Source of the DNA: Moraxella sp. | GTDB lineage: Bacteria; Pseudomonadota; Gammaproteobacteria; Pseudomonadales; Moraxellaceae | Direction of reading: 5' to 3' | NCBI RefSeq assembly: GCF_030525845.1 | Contig: NZ_JAUNDY010000013.1 | Coordinates: 1 to 48,498 of the forward strand | Length of the DNA stretch: 48,498 nt | Shown: positions 2,215 to 45,061 of the stretch, piece after piece | Numbering within the stretch: position 1 is the first letter of the stretch | Layout: each line of letters begins with the position of its first letter | Notes under the pieces: generated by a model | Database searches by the model: none | What the model saw: only the letters and a program-made list of their open reading frames with translations | What the model was told of the DNA's origin: nothing | Made by a program: the position numbers and the translations under genes

Positions 2215-2698
2215 AAGATTACCTTTTAAACAAGTAAATAAAAATATGATGTTTTTTTAAATTTAATGTAAAAAATAATTGTATCATTTTTTATAAATAA
2301 CACAATCAATAATCGGTGCACTCTTAATATTTCCCCACAAATCCAACCTTTACTATAAAGCTATATTGGGATATAGTTTTGTGATATTTGCACCGTTATT
2401 ATTTTAAAACAAATGATTTTAATCGCCATAAATCAAAACCTGTGGGGGACTGATTAAACCTGCATAGACTAGACCAGAAGCCAGATGAAGCCCAAGCCAT
2501 TGATACACCTAAGCTGTGGGCAGGTGGGCGGTCAAGAATATGCACAAAACAAAATGATAAAAATTGATGAAAAGTGATAGGAAAATGATGAAAAAATGTG
2601 CATAAATGATTGGTTTTTGATGGGTGTTTAAACGACATTTAAAACCGTTTAAAAGCCCATCAAGGGGCGATGTGTGGGGCGTGGCAAGTGGATATGAC
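2215..2698. other. AT-rich intergenic stretch without a clear gene
   Basis: About 480 bases upstream of the oxidoreductase and before two small plus-strand frames. The part at 2220-2400 is very AT-rich and probably holds the oxidoreductase promoter. At about 2548-2598 there is a run of loosely repeated GATAAAA/GATGAAAA units. No RNA gene or confident coding region is seen. Confidence 0.5.
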
Positions 2699-28016: not shown

Positions 28017-28535
28017 TTAGTTTTCTACTTTGAGATACCCAGCTGATTTTACTGATAAAAATTTATCAATATTTTTTAGAATATTTAATTCAAAGTCTTT
28101 ATGACTTTGAAAGTTTTCAGAAATTTTTTTATCAATTGGCATATAAGATACAAAGTTTTCCATATCTTCTGGGTAGCCAAAATTAGCATATAAATTATCT
28201 ATTTCCATAAACAATCTGGATAAGTTACTTTCGTATTTTCTTAAATGATAAATTATTGCAAATTTTGTTTTATCTTTCGCAATCAATATATTATCATCAA
28301 AATTTTTTGACAAATCATCTAATTGACCTAAAGCAATCAAAACCATTTCTTTTTCAAAACTATCCAACAATAGAAGATCAGTCTCATCATCATTCAAGAC
28401 ATTTCCAGAATTTATTTTACACACTAAATATTCATCTACAATCTTTGGATCAAATAAATTTTGTTCTATGCAAAAATATATAATAAACCAATCCAAAGGC
28501 ATGTTGATTTCATTGAAAATGGAAAGTGAGTACAT
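28017..28535 (-). CDS. candidate immunity protein, DUF2247-like
   Basis: This encodes 172 residues of an acidic, helical cytoplasmic protein. The opening MPLDWFIIYFCIEQNLFDP followed by ETDLLLLDSFEKEM resembles the DUF2247 family, members of which are often found next to polymorphic toxins. A strong ribosome site (AGGAG) precedes the start, 12 bases after the stop of an orphan toxin C-terminus on the same strand. This spacing is typical of a toxin-immunity pair. AT content is higher than in the flanking housekeeping genes, as for the whole island. The protein would bind and neutralise the cognate toxin in the cytoplasm. Confidence 0.6.
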   Translation of the reverse strand: MYSLSIFNEINMPLDWFIIYFCIEQNLFDPKIVDEYLVCKINSGNVLNDDETDLLLLDSFEKEMVLIALGQLDDLSKNFDDNILIAKDKTKFAIIYHLRKYESNLSRLFMEIDNLYANFGYPEDMENFVSYMPIDKKISENFQSHKDFELNILKNIDKFLSVKSAGYLKVEN

Positions 28536-28547
28536 TTTTCTCCTATT

Positions 28548-28842
28548 TTAGAGGTCTTGCGTTTGGCTTCCTGTTATTTGCACATCTCCAACAAATCTGC
28601 GATGAACAACGCCTTTTGTGGGATCTGGATCAATTATCCATTCAAAAACTCCTCTTTTGCCATTAAGATAGCCTTCAATCTGATACAAATCACGCTCAAC
28701 GCCATCTCCTCCTTTTAAACCGAACTTGGTTGCATTTCCTGCGTAATTATCAATAATATTGTTAAAAGCATGCAGTTCACCTGCTTTTAAAGCACTACCT
28801 AACTTGGGGCGTTTAAAACGGATTGCGATTGGGTGGTACCAT
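28548..28842 (-). pseudogene. orphan toxin C-terminal cassette without start codon
   Basis: An open frame of about 97 codons ends at TAA 28550-28548. It reads LKAGELHAFNNIIDNYAG, then GLKGGDGVERDLYQIEG, LNGKRGVFEWIIDPDP and VVHRRFVGDVQITG, the style of C-terminal nuclease-like domains of polymorphic and contact-dependent toxins. There is no in-frame ATG, GTG or TTG start with a ribosome site, and a stop lies a few codons upstream. It is therefore a silent cassette that could only be expressed by recombining behind a complete N-terminus, as described for mafB-CT cassettes in Neisseria. Its upstream end contains a 38-base piece identical to mafA DNA. The specific toxin family is not identified. 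Confidence 0.65.
28800..28837 (-). repeat. 38-base direct repeat with mafA (32477-32514)
   Basis: This stretch is identical to an internal part of mafA in the same orientation. In mafA it is read in one frame; here it forms the upstream edge of the orphan toxin cassette and is read in another. It marks an old recombination junction. Confidence 0.85.
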
Positions 28843-28871
28843 AGTTTTATGTATTATAAAAATATTATAAA

Positions 28872-29228
28872 CTACTTAATACCGCTATAACAATCATCAA
28901 TATCATCTTTAAATTCAGAGAGCATTTCCAATAACTCCACTTTTACATCATTGCTTAAAACAAGTATCTCTATATTATTATAAATAAAATCATAAACACT
29001 AGATAAACCCAAAGCACCTATAATAAAAGATAATTTTTCAACATTATCAATTGACTGCAATATATTACCTAAATTCTTTAAAATCCAAATTGATAACTTA
29101 TCATTTACATCATCACAGATTTTGTTATATTCATGCCACTGCACATCAGAAAGCTCATATAACTGCTCAAACAAATCATTTGAAAAATCATAAGTGATAA
29201 TATCGGAAAAATTTTCAATATTTCTCAT
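28872..29228 (-). CDS. candidate immunity protein
   Basis: This encodes 118 residues of an acidic, mostly helical, soluble protein without signal peptide; no family is recognised. It begins 14 bases after the stop of the preceding toxin C-terminus on the same strand, the position of the cognate immunity gene. Its very low pI composition (many Asp and Glu, few basic residues) fits a protein that binds a basic toxin domain. The next cassette follows about 30 bases downstream. Confidence 0.55.
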   Translation of the reverse strand: MRNIENFSDIITYDFSNDLFEQLYELSDVQWHEYNKICDDVNDKLSIWILKNLGNILQSIDNVEKLSFIIGALGLSSVYDFIYNNIEILVLSNDVKVELLEMLSEFKDDIDDCYSGIK

Positions 29229-29242
29229 AAGACATCGTCCAT

Positions 29243-29827
29243 TTATTGTAAGGGAATATGAGTTATATTACTTGGCTTTCTATAAAACCTGCCATCACTT
29301 CCCAATAATTTATTCCCCACTTTAATCTGTGCAGTCCACTCTCTACCCGAATTACTATTTGGATACTTTTGTGCTGCATTAACATCTGGCGAATGCCATT
29401 TAATTTCTACTTTTGTACCATTTATATCAAATGAATACTTATACCCAGCAGAAATTGTCGCTGAAGGGGCAAAAGTATTAGGAGTATCACTAGGTATCAT
29501 TGCTTTGAGTACGCCTAAATCAGCCCTACCACCTTTTAAAGATTGTTTGACTGCTTCATGTGGATCATAATTTACCAAACCTGCTTGACCAGATTGTGAA
29601 TTATGTGCTTGATTATGGTTGCTAGATGTTTTAAGAGGTTTATTGCTACCTGCCAACCTTTCATCAATAGGTGGCACACCTAAACTTGCACCCCCCCCCC
29701 ATCACATCACTACCCCCACCCACTCCTTTGGGTAGCCCCGCCCTAGCTCCTACTGCTGTTGTGCCAACATTAATGCCAAGTTGGGTGGTTTGTGCAGAAT
29801 TTGGGTTGTTTGCCGTATAAAGCTGAC
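29243..29827 (-). pseudogene. toxin C-terminal cassette interrupted at a G10 tract
   Basis: The downstream 144 codons encode VPPIDERLAGSNKP, then a beta-rich domain (GYKYSFDINGTKVEIKWHSP, GREWTAQIKVGNKLLG, ITHIPL) typical of polymorphic-toxin tips. Upstream of the G-tract the same cassette continues in another frame with a Gly-rich linker (QLGINVGTTAVGARAG, LPKGVGGGSDVMGGG). With the ten Gs present here (29691-29700) the upper frame runs into TGA. With nine or twelve the two halves join into one open frame. No start codon with a good ribosome site is visible at its upstream end, which abuts the previous immunity gene, so it is also probably a silent cassette. I cannot name the toxin family with certainty. 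Confidence 0.65.
29691..29700 (-). repeat. G10 homopolymer tract inside a toxin cassette
   Basis: Ten consecutive C on the plus strand are ten G in the coding direction. A change of one unit (to nine) restores the frame across the cassette. Homopolymer tracts of this length are typical slipped-strand phase-variation sites in Moraxella and Neisseria. Confidence 0.85.
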
Positions 29828-30250
29828 TTACTCTTTGATTTCTGTGGTTAATACAGAATGGATGCTTTTAGGAAGTTGTAAAAAAGCATTCCATGCAATC
29901 AATACACTCTTAAACATGGATAAAGAACAGCTTAAATCAGGCCAGCCATCTTCTTCGTCAAATTCGTTATGGTAAAAGGTAACTTTCTCGGCAGAAATTT
30001 TCCACTCAAATCCCTGACCTGCCCCCCAAAAAACCTCGTTAGGATTATTTTCAGCTTGGCAAATCAAATCTAAATTTTCATCTATATCTTTCTTTAAATA
30101 AAGATCTCCAGTCATAACATAAATTAGGTATTCGTATATTTTGGGATTATGAATTCTATTACCATTTTCATCTACGAATGCGCATGAACTCCACACATCA
30201 TGATTGCCTTGTTGTCGATAAAAACATTTAAAAATATATTTATGTCTCAT
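29828..30250 (-). CDS. candidate immunity protein
   Basis: This encodes 140 residues of a soluble protein without signal peptide, rich in aromatic and acidic residues (NEVFWGAGQGFEWKI, FDEEDGWPDLSCSL). It starts 13 bases after the stop of the EndoU-like toxin fragment and so is its likely immunity partner. The upstream sequence AGGAGATTTATATG gives it a good ribosome site. No named family is recognised with confidence. Confidence 0.6.
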   Translation of the reverse strand: MRHKYIFKCFYRQQGNHDVWSSCAFVDENGNRIHNPKIYEYLIYVMTGDLYLKKDIDENLDLICQAENNPNEVFWGAGQGFEWKISAEKVTFYHNEFDEEDGWPDLSCSLSMFKSVLIAWNAFLQLPKSIHSVLTTEIKE

Positions 30251-30263
30251 ATAAATCTCCTAA

Positions 30264-30461
30264 CTATTCATCATAAACAGGAAATGCTGTACCTTTTGGA
30301 GTAGTGTACCCTCGTATCAAAACGCCAGAATCTGACCTACCCTCCCATTTATCACCATCAACCTGTCTACTCTCCCACGCCGATGTTACCTCACTTCTAA
30401 TTCTCGCTTCATCCCAATGAGCAGGAAACATGGAGTGGTTGGTCATGGGTCTGAATATACC
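30264..30461 (-). pseudogene. truncated EndoU-like toxin C-terminus
   Basis: About 65 codons encode the end of a nuclease toxin domain: MTNHSMFPAHWDEARIRSEV, WEGRSDSGVLIRGYTTP and TAFPVYDE. The W-D...I pattern and the final GxxIxGYxxP...TAFPVY strand pair resemble the last half of bacterial EndoU RNase domains found in CDI and Maf toxins. The N-terminal half of the domain, with its first catalytic histidine region, is missing, and a stop codon lies five codons upstream of the possible ATG at 30446. It is a 5'-truncated cassette retained in front of its immunity gene. Confidence 0.6.
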
Positions 30462-30634
30462 TCAAGTTTGATAAATTTTGTAACAAATCCAGCAGACCAT
30501 AACATTGCAATATGCAATAGATGTTATTTGATAACGCACAACATGTCTTGCAACAGTAAGTAGTTCATAATCTTGATTGTTCATTTTTATCCTCATCATT
30601 TTGTTGAATATCCCAATGAATATACACCCCTACA
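30462..30634. other. short gap in the toxin island
   Basis: No gene is seen. The minus strand has several stops in all frames; the DNA is AT-rich and may be a degraded part of a toxin cassette. Confidence 0.4.
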
Positions 30635-30868
30635 TTACCCAAACATATCTTTTTTAAATTTTCTTAATGATAGCACCACACAGGGGACAAGGATAAAGTA
30701 ATGAAAATATAAAAGAATAATAATCCAACTATAAAACATAAAACGATATAGCACAGGATAGTCAGATACGTTCACCAAAAAACTCAAACCAAAATGTACC
30801 GCCAAATAAAAGAAGTATTTAAACATTCTCTTCTTTTCTACTTCAAGGTCTATTGTAATTTTTGACAT
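30635..30868 (-). CDS. small two-helix membrane protein, possible immunity protein
   Basis: This encodes 77 residues with two hydrophobic helices (FKYFFYLAVHFGLSFLVNV and SWIIILLYFHYFILVPCVVL) joined by a short loop, with a basic C-terminal tail. Its start overlaps the end of the MafB-position gene by 19 bases, so the two are translationally coupled. That position corresponds to mafI in Neisseria islands, and a membrane location would suit protection against a membrane-active toxin. This is inferred from position only. Confidence 0.55.
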   Translation of the reverse strand: MSKITIDLEVEKKRMFKYFFYLAVHFGLSFLVNVSDYPVLYRFMFYSWIIILLYFHYFILVPCVVLSLRKFKKDMFG

Positions 30869-32004
30869 TCTTTAATCTCCTTTTTGCAAGCTAATATGGA
30901 AGCGCCTACACCAAAACCAGTTTTGACTCCTCCTCCAACTGATGTTGAACCATCTATTCCCACAGAGCCAGATAAACCGCCACCATAACCGATGGTTGGT
31001 GTTCCGCCAGTCGCCGTAACAGACCAACTGCTACTATTTTCTGTGAGCATACCTGTATTTCCATGCACGCTGGCACCAACAGAAACTTCCGCCATCGGAC
31101 CGATACCGATACAAGCCGTGTCTGTTTTGCATACATTTCCACTAGTATCTCTTGCATAACCAGAGGACATTTGTCCAATCACACCCAGTCCAGCAGTATA
31201 TCCGATTTCCAATTCGCGATTCACCCTAAGATTAATCAAATCATCGATTGGTTTTGGGTATTGACCATTATCATCTAGATCGCCAAAATCAGTTGGTCTT
31301 GGGCGTTCTGAATATCTGTCATTACGAGATTTTCGCTGTGGTTTGTCTTGATTCTCAAAATCATAGCCATAAGGTGCACGATGTTCATTCGGCTGTGCTT
31401 GTTCTCTGCGATCCAAGTACGCCTGATGGAGCCAAACACGATCTTGTGGCGATAGATTAAGATTGTCTAGCTGGTCAATGAAATAATTGCGCGCTCTGAT
31501 TTCAGGTAGGATTTCGGTAAAGGCATGATTTTTTGTGCCATCACGGCTATTCTTGCTGATGGTGCGAAAGGCAGCTGAGCCTGAATAGTCACCCTTTTTC
31601 TGTACGCCATTTGTGGTTAAATGACCGGCAATTTGGATAGAACCATCAGACTCTGCATGTGCTTTTATTTTATCAGCCCAACTCTCCCATTTTGGGGTAT
31701 GCCCCAAGACACTTTCTATTTCGTTGTAGGCACGCTGACTGTATATTGTGTAACCGTGTGTTCTGTCTTGCTCGCCAACTTCTTGAATGTATAATCTTGC
31801 CCCATATTCATAGGCATTGTTGTTTTTAAAGAATTGCTCAGAATTTGTTGGTAGTTTAGATAATTGTATAGGATTTGGTAGGATTAATCTACCATTTTCA
31901 TCGATCTTGGGCGGTGGTAGTGAGTTTGCAAATGAGGTTGGCGATAAACTAATGATGAATGAGAATATTGCAAAAGCACTTAATAAACGTATGAAATAAA
32001 ACAT
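30850..32004 (-). CDS. secreted MafB-position protein with Gly-rich C-terminal domain
   Basis: This encodes 384 residues with an N-terminal signal peptide (hydrophobic LLSAFAIFSFIISL, cleavage likely after SFA). The middle is hydrophilic and helical (about residues 60-210), with RTHGYTIYSQRAYNEIES and RARNYFIDQLDNLNLSPQDR. From about residue 260 a Gly/Ser-rich segment begins (GYTAGLGVIGQMSSGYARD, GYGGGLSGSVGIDGSTSVGG), containing two cysteine pairs and ending CKKEIKECQ. It follows mafA by 12 bases, exactly where mafB stands in Neisseria. However, I do not see the usual MafB N-terminal (DUF1020) sequence, so the assignment is by position. The C-terminal domain could be a membrane-acting toxin tip. 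Confidence 0.6.
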   Translation of the reverse strand: MFYFIRLLSAFAIFSFIISLSPTSFANSLPPPKIDENGRLILPNPIQLSKLPTNSEQFFKNNNAYEYGARLYIQEVGEQDRTHGYTIYSQRAYNEIESVLGHTPKWESWADKIKAHAESDGSIQIAGHLTTNGVQKKGDYSGSAAFRTISKNSRDGTKNHAFTEILPEIRARNYFIDQLDNLNLSPQDRVWLHQAYLDRREQAQPNEHRAPYGYDFENQDKPQRKSRNDRYSERPRPTDFGDLDDNGQYPKPIDDLINLRVNRELEIGYTAGLGVIGQMSSGYARDTSGNVCKTDTACIGIGPMAEVSVGASVHGNTGMLTENSSSWSVTATGGTPTIGYGGGLSGSVGIDGSTSVGGGVKTGFGVGASILACKKEIKECQKLQ

Positions 32005-41369: not shown

Positions 41370-41801
41370 TTATTTGTCCAGTTTGGCACTGATTTCACGC
41401 AACAGTAGCACTTCTTCTGATGGTTCTGCTGGGGCTTCTGGCTCGGCTTCGGCTTGTTTGCGCATTTTATTCATGCCTTTAACCATCATAAAGATGATAA
41501 ACGCCAAAATTACAAAGTTAATTAATACCGTGATAAAACTACCGTACGCAAGCATAGGCACGCCAGCTTCTTTTAGGGCATCATAGGTCATCGCCACGCC
41601 CTCTGGTGCTTCGCCCAACGTGATAAACATGTTTTTAAAGTCAATGTCGCCACCAACAATAAACGACACAATCGGCATAATCACATCTTCAACCAAAGAG
41701 GTGGTAATTTTACCGAATGCACCGCCGATGATGACACCGACAGCCAAATCCATCACGTTGCCTTTGAGGGCAAATTCTTTAAATTCTTGGATAATACTCA
41801 T
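41370..41801 (-). CDS. mscL: large-conductance mechanosensitive channel
   Basis: This encodes 143 residues. MscL is a pentameric inner-membrane channel that opens under osmotic downshock. The start [20 protein letters not shown] and the first helix [20 protein letters not shown] are highly conserved, as are the second helix ([20 protein letters not shown]) and the charged C-terminal bundle ([15 protein letters not shown]). An acidic Pro/Glu/Ala stretch precedes the bundle. It is monocistronic. Confidence 0.97.
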
Positions 41802-41934: not shown

Positions 41935-42339
41935 TTAATCACGTCTATATGACAACAGCACATCAAACACATGTTTGGCTAGCACACCTATCGCCACTCC
42001 CATAACAATGCAGATGATTAGCACCCACAATTTTAAATCAAAAGACCCAAATCCACTACCAGCCCACATAACAAGAAACCAAGCTACAATCAGCCATACA
42101 CATGTCATCGTACCAAAATACAGTATACGCATCCACCACCTCTTGGAGTGGCGAAAATACAAAACACAGAAAGTAAATATGACCCAAAAGGCTATGCAAG
42201 CTGGCACACCATACCTTAAAGGCATGCCAGGTGCCAAAAAAGCAATGCCCCCTATTGCTATAAGTGGCATAAGACACCACAACAATACACAGTTTAACCA
42301 ATACGGCAAAAACGTAAATAAGTAAACACTGCACGACAT
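41935..42339 (-). CDS. four-helix membrane protein, likely bacteriocin immunity protein
   Basis: This encodes 134 residues from MSCSVYLFTFLPYWL with four hydrophobic helices (about 14-35, 43-63, 70-92, 103-122) and short polar loops, ending KHVFDVLLSYRRD. The start is 4 bases after the stop of the ferredoxin-toxin frame on the same strand. That places it as the immunity partner: four-helix inner-membrane immunity proteins protect against several colicins and M-type pyocins that act from the periplasm. The frame is open for 32 further codons upstream, overlapping the toxin, but those residues lack any hydrophobic start and look non-coding. The gene is intact although the toxin gene is broken. 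Confidence 0.65.
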   Translation of the reverse strand: MSCSVYLFTFLPYWLNCVLLWCLMPLIAIGGIAFLAPGMPLRYGVPACIAFWVIFTFCVLYFRHSKRWWMRILYFGTMTCVWLIVAWFLVMWAGSGFGSFDLKLWVLIICIVMGVAIGVLAKHVFDVLLSYRRD

Positions 42340-42343
42340 GTGA

Positions 42344-43134
42344 TTATCTATTTTTGAACTTACGGTATTGTTCTGGTGTGATGGGGTGCAAGATACTTTC
42401 TTTCCACCCACCAATGATATCGTATGACACACCATCAGGATTCCATTCTCCCCACGGAGAATTTATATTAAACAAATTGTAAGGATCAGTAAACCTATCA
42501 TGAACATCATAATAGATGTCGCCTTTTAGGTAGTATCCATTTCCGATTTGCACCACGCCACCTTCAAATCTCCCCGACAAGGTAAAACCACCAATCCCCC
42601 ATTCAGCACTCCCTATATCCTGCCAATAATCCCCAGGATAGGCATTACGAAAGTCTCTGCTACCGCCCAAAACTTGGTTGATAAAATCCCCTTGCACACT
42701 ACGACCATTCTTTTTGCCCAATGTGTTGGGTGTTACTACTAATTTTCACACCCTTTGAGTCATTGCAAGGTCATCTAGGGTACGAGTTTTGCCCGCCCCT
42801 TCTTGATAGTAATCATACAAGTCCCAAGCAGTTAAGCCATCTAACAGCTTCTCTTGCTCAGTATAAATAATGCAATCACTTCGTGGATAAGCCACACACA
42901 GGCATACAAAGCCCTTTTGGATTTGTCCATCATTTAAGGACATCTGTTCGCTTTGGTCTACCTCGCCACTCTTTAGTCTACCCACACAGCTTGTATAGGT
43001 ACCATTGCGACACGCATAGGGCAATTCAAAACCAATCTTATCCGCCCTATTTAAAATCGTCTCATCATCAGAACAATCAAAAGAAATCTCTCTCTCCTAC
43101 TTGGTGCAATCAAGTGTATTCGATACGCCGTCAT
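42344..43134 (-). pseudogene. broken ferredoxin-domain bacteriocin (pectocin-like architecture)
   Basis: Read from ATG 43134 with one GA unit removed, about 262 codons open. Residues 1-95 are a plant-type [2Fe-2S] ferredoxin: MTAYRIHLIAPS, FDCSDDETIL, GFELPYACRNG, GEVDQSEQMSLNDGQI and CVAYPRSDC. The ligand spacing is kept (Cys41, position 46, Cys49, then 29 residues to Cys79), but position 46 is Tyr, not Cys. A helical linker follows (GLTAWDLYDYYQEGAGK), then TGA 42748-42746 in frame, then a toxin-like domain of about 110 residues (FINQVLGGSRDF, DYWQDIGSAEWGIGGFTLSG, YYDVHDRFTDPYNLF, YDIIGGWKESI). Length and domain order match ferredoxin-containing bacteriocins of Pectobacterium. The colicin M catalytic pattern D-x-Y-D...H-R is not clear. 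Three lesions make it non-functional as read: the frameshift, the Cys-to-Tyr change and the stop. Confidence 0.85.
43087..43096 (-). repeat. (GA)5 dinucleotide repeat at the frameshift of the ferredoxin gene
   Basis: Five TC units on the plus strand are five GA in the coding direction, inside codons 13-16. With five units the frame runs into a stop at codon 28; with four (or seven) units it continues into the ferredoxin domain. It may be a slipped-strand switch or the scar of one slip. Confidence 0.75.
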
Positions 43135-43161
43135 TTCCGCTCCCTCTATATGCCTTGTTTT

Positions 43162-43167
43162 ATTATA
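43162..43167 (-). promoter_or_regulatory. consensus -10 box upstream of the ferredoxin gene
   Basis: TATAAT on the minus strand lies about 28 bases upstream of ATG 43134, with AGGGAG as ribosome site just before the ATG. The -35 region is poor and overlaps the typA terminator. Confidence 0.5.
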
Positions 43168-43174
43168 CAACAAA

Positions 43175-43205
43175 AAACCACAAAACACTTGGTATTTTGT
43201 GGTTT
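43175..43205 (-). terminator. terminator of typA
   Basis: AAACCACAAAA and TTTTGTGGTTT form an 11-bp stem with a 9-base loop just after the typA stop, followed on the minus strand by a T-rich run. Confidence 0.8.
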
Positions 43206-43213
43206 CATTTGAT

Positions 43214-45061
43214 TTAATCAGCTTTTTTACGACCAAAACGTTTGCGGTCGTTTTCTGTCAAATATTTTTTGCGGATACGGATAGATTTTGGTGTTACTTC
43301 TACAAGTTCATCGTCTTCAATGAATTCTAGGGCTTGCTCCAACGTGTATTCTAGGGCAGGCGTTAGAATGATCGCATCGTCTGAACCTGATGCACGAATG
43401 TTGGTCAGCTGTTTTGCCTTAGTGGGGTTTACCACCATATCATCGCCACGAGCGTTGATGCCGACAATCATGCCCTCATACACTTCAAGCTGTGGCTTGG
43501 CAAATAGGCGACCACGCTCTTGCAAGCTAAACAGAGCATAGCCCAAGCACGTGCCTGTTACCATCGAAATGAGTACGCCGTTTTGGCGTTTGGCAACTGA
43601 CCCTTCTTTCATCGGACCATAGTGGCTAAAACTAGATGTCATAATCCCAGTACCAGAGGTCATCGTCAAAAATTCTGAACGAAAACCAATCAAACAACGA
43701 GATGGCACGGTCGCTTCAATACGGATACGACCCTTGCCGTCCACTTCCATGTTAGTCAGCTCGCCTTTGCGGTTACCCATCTCTTGCATGACCGCCCCTT
43801 GATGTTGTTCCTCAACGTCAAAAGTAACGTTTTCAAAGGGTTCGCACTTAACGCCATCAATTTCCTTGATGATGACCTCAGGACGAGACACACCAAGCTC
43901 AAAGCCCTCACGTCTCATGTTTTCAATGAGTACCGACAAGTGCAGTTCGCCACGCCCAGACACCTTAAATTTGTCAGGACTGTCAGTATCCTCCACTCTC
44001 AACGCCACGTTGTGAATAAGTTCACGGTCAAGGCGTTCACGGATATTGCGAGAGGTAACAAATTTACCCTCTTTACCTGCAAAGGGGCTGTCGTTTACTT
44101 GGAAAGTCATCGATACGGTTGGCTCGTCCACGCTAAGTGGTGGCAACGCCTCGACTTCTTTGGGGTCGCACAACGTGTCCGAGATATTCAGGTTATCAAT
44201 GCCTGTGATACACACGATGTCGCCAGCAGATGCACTGTCTACGTCCACACGCTCCAAGCCATGATAGCCCATGATTTTTAGGATACGACCGTTACGCTTA
44301 TTGCCGTCTTTATCAACCACCACCACAGGGGTATTTGTCTTGACACTACCACGCTGAATGCGACCCACGCCAATCACGCCCACAAAGCTGTTGTAGTCTA
44401 GTGATGAGATTTGCATTTGAAACGCACCGTCTGCGTCCACTTTTGGTGGTTCAACAATGTCCACAATCGTCTCAAAAAGTGGAGTCATGTCAGGGGCAAG
44501 GTTATTCGCTTCACGCCCTGCAATGCCGTTAATGCCTGAGGCATAGACAATGGGGAAATCAAGCTGTTCGTCCGTACCGCCCAAATTGTCAAATAAATCA
44601 AACACTTGATCAATGACCCAATCGGCACGGGCAGCGGGTTTGTCAATCTTATTGATAATAACAATCGGCTTTAAGCCACGAGCAAAGGCTTTTTGGGTAA
44701 CAAAGCGAGTTTGTGGCATTGGACCTTCTTGGCTATCCACCAAAAGTAGTACGCAATCCACCATCGATAATACACGCTCAACTTCGCCACCAAAGTCGGC
44801 GTGTCCGGGGGTGTCCACGATGTTAATGCGGTATTCGATGCCTGAGCGTTTATCCGTCCATTTGATGGCGGTGTTTTTGGCAAGAATGGTAATACCACGC
44901 TCACTTTCTAGGGCATTGGAGTCCATGACTCGCTCAATCTCGCCCGCACGTTCGCCCAAAGCACCAGACTGCTGTAAAAGTTTATCTACCAGCGTGGTTT
45001 TGCCATGGTCAACGTGAGCGATGATGGCGATGTTGCGTAGGTGTTGAATGTTGTTTGACAT
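43214..45061 (-). CDS. typA: GTPase TypA/BipA
   Basis: This encodes 615 residues, the usual length. TypA is a ribosome-associated translational GTPase related to EF-G, important under stress and cold. G motifs are [29 protein letters not shown] and NKIDKPAAR. The later [20 protein letters not shown] and the C-terminal [14 protein letters not shown] are typical of TypA rather than EF-G. It is monocistronic with its own terminator; about 220 bases of AT-rich leader precede the start. Confidence 0.97.

What the first reader, a model, noticed from the sequence alone, without database searches (positions are those of the whole stretch)
42344..43134. Ferredoxin-domain bacteriocin gene in a Moraxella-like genome
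The sequence shows a plant-type [2Fe-2S] ferredoxin domain with correct ligand spacing, a helical linker and a separate C-terminal toxin-like domain in one frame (after one GA unit is removed and one stop is read through), about 262 residues in all. Known pectocins M and P of Pectobacterium use a ferredoxin domain to be imported through a ferredoxin receptor. I know of no such protein described in Moraxellaceae. An animal-associated host would imply a different ferredoxin or iron-protein receptor as target.
Basis: partly seen in the sequence, partly recalled or inferred. Interest (0 to 1): 0.95.

Follow-up and report, generated by a model that had tools for sequence, protein, structure and literature searches.

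The report
Broken ferredoxin-toxin gene in Moraxella
A Moraxella-type bacterium carries the remains of an antibacterial toxin that wears a plant-type ferredoxin as its likely entry ticket, joined to a toxin type other than those known with it, and the same genome still encodes a close relative of the receptor that such toxins use to enter rival cells.

Summary
On the minus strand, 43134-42344, lies a ferredoxin-module bacteriocin gene, now interrupted: a frame break at a GA tract (43087-43096), one in-frame TGA (42746-42748), Tyr for the second Fe-S cysteine, Asn at an otherwise invariant toxin Asp. The fusion shows without mending: one open frame (42746-43024) holds much of a plant-type ferredoxin (best solved-structure hit E 1.1e-19) and the start of the toxin domain; the rest follows at 42344-42721. 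The toxin domain does not match colicin M or pesticin; it belongs to an unnamed polymorphic toxin domain (phrog_31798, E 1.6e-32), found elsewhere behind PAAR, RHS, VgrG-like, phage Mu-F and colicin-Z-like parts. In 19 of 19 related loci the next ORF is a predicted membrane protein (control 123 of 566); here a four-helix ORF starts 4 nt downstream. So the toxin probably acts in the periplasm or at the inner membrane. The same genome encodes a FusA orthologue (E 3e-240), with most of FusC deleted; another genome of the genus has both whole. Best reading: a third kind of ferredoxin bacteriocin, entering through FusA, outside Pectobacteriaceae, decayed in this strain. Toxin chemistry, receptor use and any intact copy are unproven.

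The parts
43097..43134 (-). start codon and first residues of the ferredoxin domain, in a frame that is lost at the GA tract
   Evidence: read; ORF 43051-43236
43087..43096 (-). (GA)5 tract where the reading frame breaks
42842..43096 (-). rest of the plant-type ferredoxin domain, three of four cluster cysteines kept
42749..42835 (-). N-terminal part of the toxin domain, in the same open frame as the ferredoxin
42746..42748 (-). in-frame TGA stop inside the toxin domain
42344..42745 (-). main part of the toxin domain and its stop codon (ORF with start codon 42344-42721)
41935..42339 (-). 134-residue ORF with four predicted membrane helices, 4 nt after the toxin stop: candidate immunity protein
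   Evidence: weak similarity to the neighbours of related toxins
43214..45061 (-). typA, upstream border of the inserted pair
   Evidence: gene name from own knowledge
41370..41801 (-). mscL, downstream border of the inserted pair
   Evidence: gene name from own knowledge

Best explanation
The locus is a decayed ferredoxin-module bacteriocin with its immunity gene, inserted between typA and mscL. In working form the N-terminal plant-type ferredoxin would bind the TonB-dependent ferredoxin receptor FusA of related strains and be pulled into the periplasm as if it were food. The C-terminal domain, a polymorphic toxin domain shared with type VI, RHS, phage-head and colicin-Z-like proteins, would then attack the cell wall or inner membrane from the periplasm, and the four-helix membrane protein next door would protect the producer. 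Shown here: the fusion, the toxin family and its varied carriers, the membrane neighbour, the FusA orthologue, the lesions. Inferred: receptor use, periplasmic action, immunity, target chemistry (cell wall more likely than pore).
For: Ferredoxin plus toxin start in one open frame. Toxin domain relatives behind PAAR (L002), RHS (L038), a VgrG-related/tail part (L039; PHROG tail E 8e-12, NCBIfam match below its cut-off), phage Mu-F (L125, L129), a colicin-Z-like N-part (L032, E 9.6e-7, below the cut-off), and in viral contigs, four of them identical over the domain to the Mannheimia locus. In 19 of 19 loci the next ORF has at least one predicted membrane helix; at other points of the same loci this is so for 123 of 566. 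FusA orthologue in the same genome; matches above 600 bits in 9 of 249 Moraxellaceae genomes, own included; a same-genus FusC is orthologous to Pectobacterium FusC (575 bits against 177 for PqqL). typA and mscL lie 114-696 nt apart in 18 of 19 other genus genomes that have mscL, 1415 nt here, so the pair is an insertion.
Against: The gene cannot make the full protein as it stands. One cluster cysteine is lost, and in the alignment two residues of the conserved S-F-L-D-D stretch, which I equate with FusB contacts F64 and D66 of spinach ferredoxin (numbering recalled), are S and N here. No dedicated FusB was found (one TonB_C match in the genome). No second copy of the fusion was seen in the sampled genomes. 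FusC is mostly deleted in this genome. The candidate immunity protein is only weakly like its counterparts. The 19 loci are not independent: some come from one genome or are near copies. No structure could be predicted.
Confidence: 0.75

Rival explanations
1. The gene is alive but switched: slippage at the GA tract turns it on and off (phase variation), with the stop read through or polymorphic.
For: (GA)5 is unique in the window and unexpected by chance; 13 of 14 columns that are invariant in the 14 relatives and covered by piece 2 are kept.
Against: An independent in-frame TGA, loss of a cluster cysteine and Asn at the one changed invariant Asp; five units is short for a switch (own knowledge).
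Confidence: 0.08
2. Sequencing or assembly errors make an intact gene look broken.
For: Draft assembly of 44 contigs; raw reads are not available.
Against: Two separate lesions plus two substitutions at conserved sites; typA and mscL next to it are open.
Confidence: 0.1
3. The toxin domain is a divergent colicin M (lipid II hydrolase) domain, so this is an ordinary pectocin M relative.
For: Ferredoxin fusion and membrane-type immunity as in ColM systems; a D-P-Y-D stretch in the relatives is superficially like D-X-Y-D.
Against: The ColM motif DXYDX5HR is absent from the family alignment (by eye), though degenerate motifs are reported in ColM domains; no Pfam hit to Colicin_M at the limits used; no ColM chain among solved structures at E up to 10 with a four-row family profile. 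A direct profile comparison was not possible for lack of ColM sequences.
Confidence: 0.1
4. The toxin domain forms pores in the inner membrane instead of attacking the wall.
For: Four-helix immunity proteins are associated with pore-forming bacteriocins (passage), and the convergent two-helix neighbours fit.
Against: The conserved residues are largely polar, acidic or Gly, with no long hydrophobic hairpin in the family alignment (by eye); several neighbours have one helix plus a soluble part, as for colicin M immunity.
Confidence: 0.25
5. Two unrelated genes lie side by side and the fusion is an illusion.
For: The frame is interrupted twice.
Against: The ferredoxin and the toxin start share one uninterrupted ORF (though the toxin start scores only 14.7 bits); the profile match spans the TGA in one frame.
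Confidence: 0.03

Closest known systems
Pectocins M1 and M2 (Pectobacterium; PDB 8jc1, 4n58)
   Same: N-terminal plant-type ferredoxin, C-terminal cytotoxic domain, similar length (268 and 279 residues in the solved chains), FusA-type receptor available
   Different: other toxin domain, no separate linker, Tyr in place of one cysteine, other family, broken
Pectocin P (ferredoxin plus pesticin domain; PMC3302902 passages)
   Same: shows that the ferredoxin module can carry a non-ColM toxin
   Different: pesticin domain; no pesticin match was found here
phrog_31798 and relatives in Mannheimia, Actinobacillus, Photorhabdus, Xenorhabdus, Treponema, Psychrobacter
   Same: same toxin domain and a membrane-protein neighbour
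   Different: other N-terminal parts: colicin-like helical, PAAR, RHS, VgrG-like, Mu-F
Colicin Z family
   Same: L032-type relatives share part of its N-terminal half; its immunity protein is predicted to have four membrane helices and its authors argue for action on peptidoglycan, not pores (PMC6668396 passages)
   Different: the match covers profile positions 49-125 of 229 only, below the family cut-off, not the toxin domain discussed here
Fus ferredoxin uptake system (FusA, FusC)
   Same: FusA orthologue in this genome; whole FusA and FusC frames side by side in same-genus G097
   Different: FusC is mostly deleted here, and no FusB-like second TonB was found

Membership tests
Ferredoxin-module bacteriocins (pectocin type) | N-terminal plant-type ferredoxin domain | tested here: met
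Ferredoxin-module bacteriocins (pectocin type) | four cysteine ligands for a [2Fe-2S] cluster | tested here: not met
   three of four; Tyr at the second
Ferredoxin-module bacteriocins (pectocin type) | cytotoxic domain in the same polypeptide | tested here: met
   one ORF holds both, but the gene is interrupted further on
Ferredoxin-module bacteriocins (pectocin type) | ColM or pesticin cytotoxic domain | tested here: not met
   no such match in Pfam, NCBIfam or solved structures
Ferredoxin-module bacteriocins (pectocin type) | uptake through FusA | not testable with these tools
   FusA orthologue present
Ferredoxin-module bacteriocins (pectocin type) | adjacent immunity gene | tested here: inconclusive
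   four-helix ORF 4 nt downstream; weak similarity only
Colicin M family | PF14859 and motif DXYDX5HR | tested here: not met
   motif
phrog_31798 toxin domain family | profile match | tested here: met
   E 1.6e-32 over profile positions 280-406 of 406
fdx_plant TIGR02008 | score over the curated cut-off | tested here: inconclusive
   74.3 against 81.15 for the piece that lacks the N-terminus
FusA (receptor at G000:C9) | full-length match to the ferredoxin receptor, well above YddB | tested here: met
   803 against 226 bits

The most novel reading that the evidence does not exclude
Moraxellaceae outside the plant-pathogen world import whole plant-type ferredoxin (for example from the plant food of a grazing host) through a true Fus system, and rival strains exploit that route with a third class of ferredoxin bacteriocin whose killing domain belongs to an undescribed family of periplasm-acting polymorphic toxins.
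Probability: 0.45. Interest if true: 0.85.

Novelty: new variant of a known kind. Interest (0 to 1): 0.72.

Why it matters
[quoted passage not shown] A ferredoxin-armed toxin gene in a genome with a FusA orthologue suggests that some of them are, and makes the question testable with one purified receptor and spinach ferredoxin. It also adds a third toxin type to the ferredoxin module and draws attention to a widely shuffled toxin domain without a name.

Tried and rejected
Search of genome contigs with the toxin piece alone found none; with the four-row alignment it found 19 loci. The Colicin_M search in 229 genomes rang nowhere, controls included, so no ColM profile could be compared. A membrane ORF in the typA-mscL gap of a close relative (G103) looked like an orphan immunity gene, but the score is weak (14.9 bits with 11.3 bias by phmmer; by tblastn, 200 shuffled copies of the query reach a median of 18.5 and up to 27.3 bits), so it is not claimed. 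The M16 protease at G000:C44 was considered as FusC and rejected: its best NCBIfam match is YfmH (31.4 bits, below the cut-off) and no receptor lies in the 12 kb taken around it. The five other receptors with a Plug match have best matches of ZnuD, haem/transferrin or siderophore type. A viral-contig scan with the ferredoxin piece found nothing. Plasmid hits of the ferredoxin piece in the listing (30 of 149) are annotated as ferredoxins, other 2Fe-2S proteins or PaaE, some unannotated; none as a bacteriocin. In the held open-access library no paper pairs Moraxella with 'ferredoxin uptake'; one pairs Moraxella with 'pectocin', a phyllosphere community study seen as a listing only; two pair Moraxella, bacteriocin and ferredoxin and six Moraxella, bacteriocin and TonB-dependent, off topic by title.

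Full report
What is there. On the minus strand an ATG at 43134-43132 opens a plant-type ferredoxin. Its frame is lost at a (GA)5 tract at 43087-43096, the only such exact match in the window (mean 0.02 in shuffles). The next open frame, 42746-43024, is 92 residues from its first start codon and open further upstream (116 residues). It matches ferredoxins of cyanobacteria and chloroplasts (E 1.1e-19 for 1roe) and pectocins M1 and M2 (E 6.1e-14, 5.9e-13). Pfam Fer2 passes its cut-off (29.5 against 21; 47.6 bits over 42881-43096). The cluster motif reads C-R-N-G-T-Y-T-S-C against C-R-A-G-A-C-S-T-C in the best hit, so one of four cysteine ligands is Tyr.

The fusion shows without any mending. A profile built from 14 relatives of the toxin domain, the window left out, matches the last 29 residues of the ferredoxin ORF at profile positions 9-37 (14.7 bits for the 37-residue tail alone, 11.4 within the whole ORF; best of 1000 shuffles of the tail 7.7), and the next ORF (42347-42721, 95 bits) at positions 47-166. 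A genome search with a four-row profile, one row being window piece 2, matched 42347-42835 as one domain in one frame with one TGA inside, 209 bits. The ferredoxin match ends at residue 61 and the toxin match begins at residue 64, so there is no separate helical linker of the pectocin kind (residues 96-116 in pectocin M1, PMC11452297 passages).

The copy is decayed. Besides the frame break and the TGA, one cluster ligand is gone. Of 14 columns that are invariant in all 14 relatives and covered by piece 2, 13 are kept; the exception is an Asp that is Asn here. An invariant Gly in the N-terminal part is Ala here (by eye). Sequencing error cannot be ruled out from one draft.

The toxin domain. 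Pfam, NCBIfam and PADLOC give nothing for piece 2; PHROGs gives phrog_31798, function unknown, E 1.6e-32. Relatives: 2 of 299 Moraxellaceae genomes, own included; 1 of 369 genomes of the class sample, own only; with the four-row profile 3 of 398 of the phylum sample, own included; two Xenorhabdus plasmids; 19 loci in named genome contigs (Xenorhabdus, Photorhabdus, Mannheimia haemolytica, Actinobacillus vicugnae, Treponema putidum, other spirochaetes, Psychrobacter glaciei); 29 loci in viral contigs. At least three of the 19 (L035, L037, L043) have only short open frames around the match and look broken too. N-terminal parts: PAAR (L002), RHS, VgrG-related/tail, Mu-F head protein, a part like the middle of colicin Z (E 9.6e-7, below the cut-off, profile positions 49-125 of 229), and helical colicin-like parts without a family. 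Window piece 2 is 46% identical to the Mannheimia domain. The domain has no ColM motif (DXYDX5HR, PMC5821083 passages) and no ColM relative among solved structures at E up to 10.

Where it acts. In 19 of 19 loci the first ORF of 60 or more residues next to the toxin has at least one predicted membrane helix by a simple hydropathy scan; at other points of the same loci this holds for 123 of 566. The 19 are not independent (two loci from one genome occur, and near copies). They are two-helix proteins of 60-75 residues, convergent, in 11 of 12 Photorhabdus and Xenorhabdus loci; three helices in Mannheimia; one or two with a soluble part in Psychrobacter and the spirochaetes. In the window a 134-residue ORF with four predicted helices starts 4 nt after the toxin stop. 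Its similarity to the neighbour in a viral-contig relative is weak (38% over 34 residues, E 0.004 for a single comparison; 13-27% in a five-row alignment). ColM systems show the same mixture of one-helix and four-helix immunity proteins. I infer action on the cell wall or inner membrane from the periplasm, with the wall somewhat more likely.

The receptor. The genome has six Plug matches. One, at G000:C9, is a full-length orthologue of the Pectobacterium ferredoxin receptor (4zgv, E 3.3e-240, 803 bits, residues 24-860 aligned) and far closer to it than to YddB (226 bits). Of 249 Moraxellaceae genomes 15 have a match at E 1e-60 or better, nine of them (own included) above 600 bits, the next at 227.5. 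I fetched the neighbourhood of four of the other eight (G089, G097, G101, G103): in 4 of 4 a FusC-like M16 protease lies next to it. Both frames are whole in G097 of the same genus (851 and 957 residues) and in G101 of another genus (848 and 918). In G103 FusC is whole (909 residues) and matches Pectobacterium FusC with 575 bits against 177 for PqqL, but its fusA has no start codon upstream in frame (735 residues from the first one); in G089 the fusC ORF, 798 residues, ends before the match does. In the window's genome only the ends of fusC are left (about codons 1-49 and 639-909 of the G103 protein). An SbmA/BacA-type ABC transporter stands divergent to fusA. Only one TonB_C match was found, so a dedicated FusB was not seen.

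The place. Of 22 genus genomes 20 have a MscL match. In 18 of the 19 others typA lies 114-696 nt from mscL; in G089 no typA was found in the fetched flank of about 1.5 kb; in the window the gap is 1415 nt. The toxin and immunity pair is therefore an insertion. No other copy of the toxin domain was found in the genus part of the sample, and in 90 other genomes of the 299 the ferredoxin piece finds ferredoxin-like stretches at 28-39% identity.

What works like what. It would work like a pectocin: ferredoxin as passport, FusA as gate, periplasmic killing. By membership it is not a pectocin M or P, because the toxin domain differs and one ligand is missing; I file it as a new variant of ferredoxin-module bacteriocins.

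Limits. Literature statements rest on passages or listings of the papers named; only the held open-access library was searched.

Noticed in passing
window 28017-32004 (-): Low-GC stretch with a 384-residue protein that I take for a MafB-like polymorphic toxin N-part (recalled resemblance, no Pfam hit), a detached C-terminal piece (29243-29677) and small ORFs, one of them DUF2247.
   Followed up: partly
G000:C9, L065:7842-8803 (-): fusC remnant: the ends are present, the middle with the catalytic part is deleted, while fusA upstream is open over its full length.
   Followed up: yes
L082:805-1500 (G103): A small polytopic membrane ORF sits in the typA-mscL gap of a close relative without any toxin; its similarity to the window's immunity candidate is too weak to claim.
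   Followed up: partly
L122-L132: Proteins in viral contigs that end in a distant version of the same toxin domain; the two tested (L125, L129) carry a phage Mu-F part and others look alike: candidate Mu-F polymorphic toxins.
   Followed up: partly
L029, L032, L033, L034: Photorhabdus and Xenorhabdus toxins with a short N-part carrying C-P-x-C-G-x-x-x-C; L032, the one tested, matches part of the N-terminal half of colicin Z.
   Followed up: partly
window 2551-2610: Short imperfect tandem repeat with a 10-base unit.
   Followed up: no
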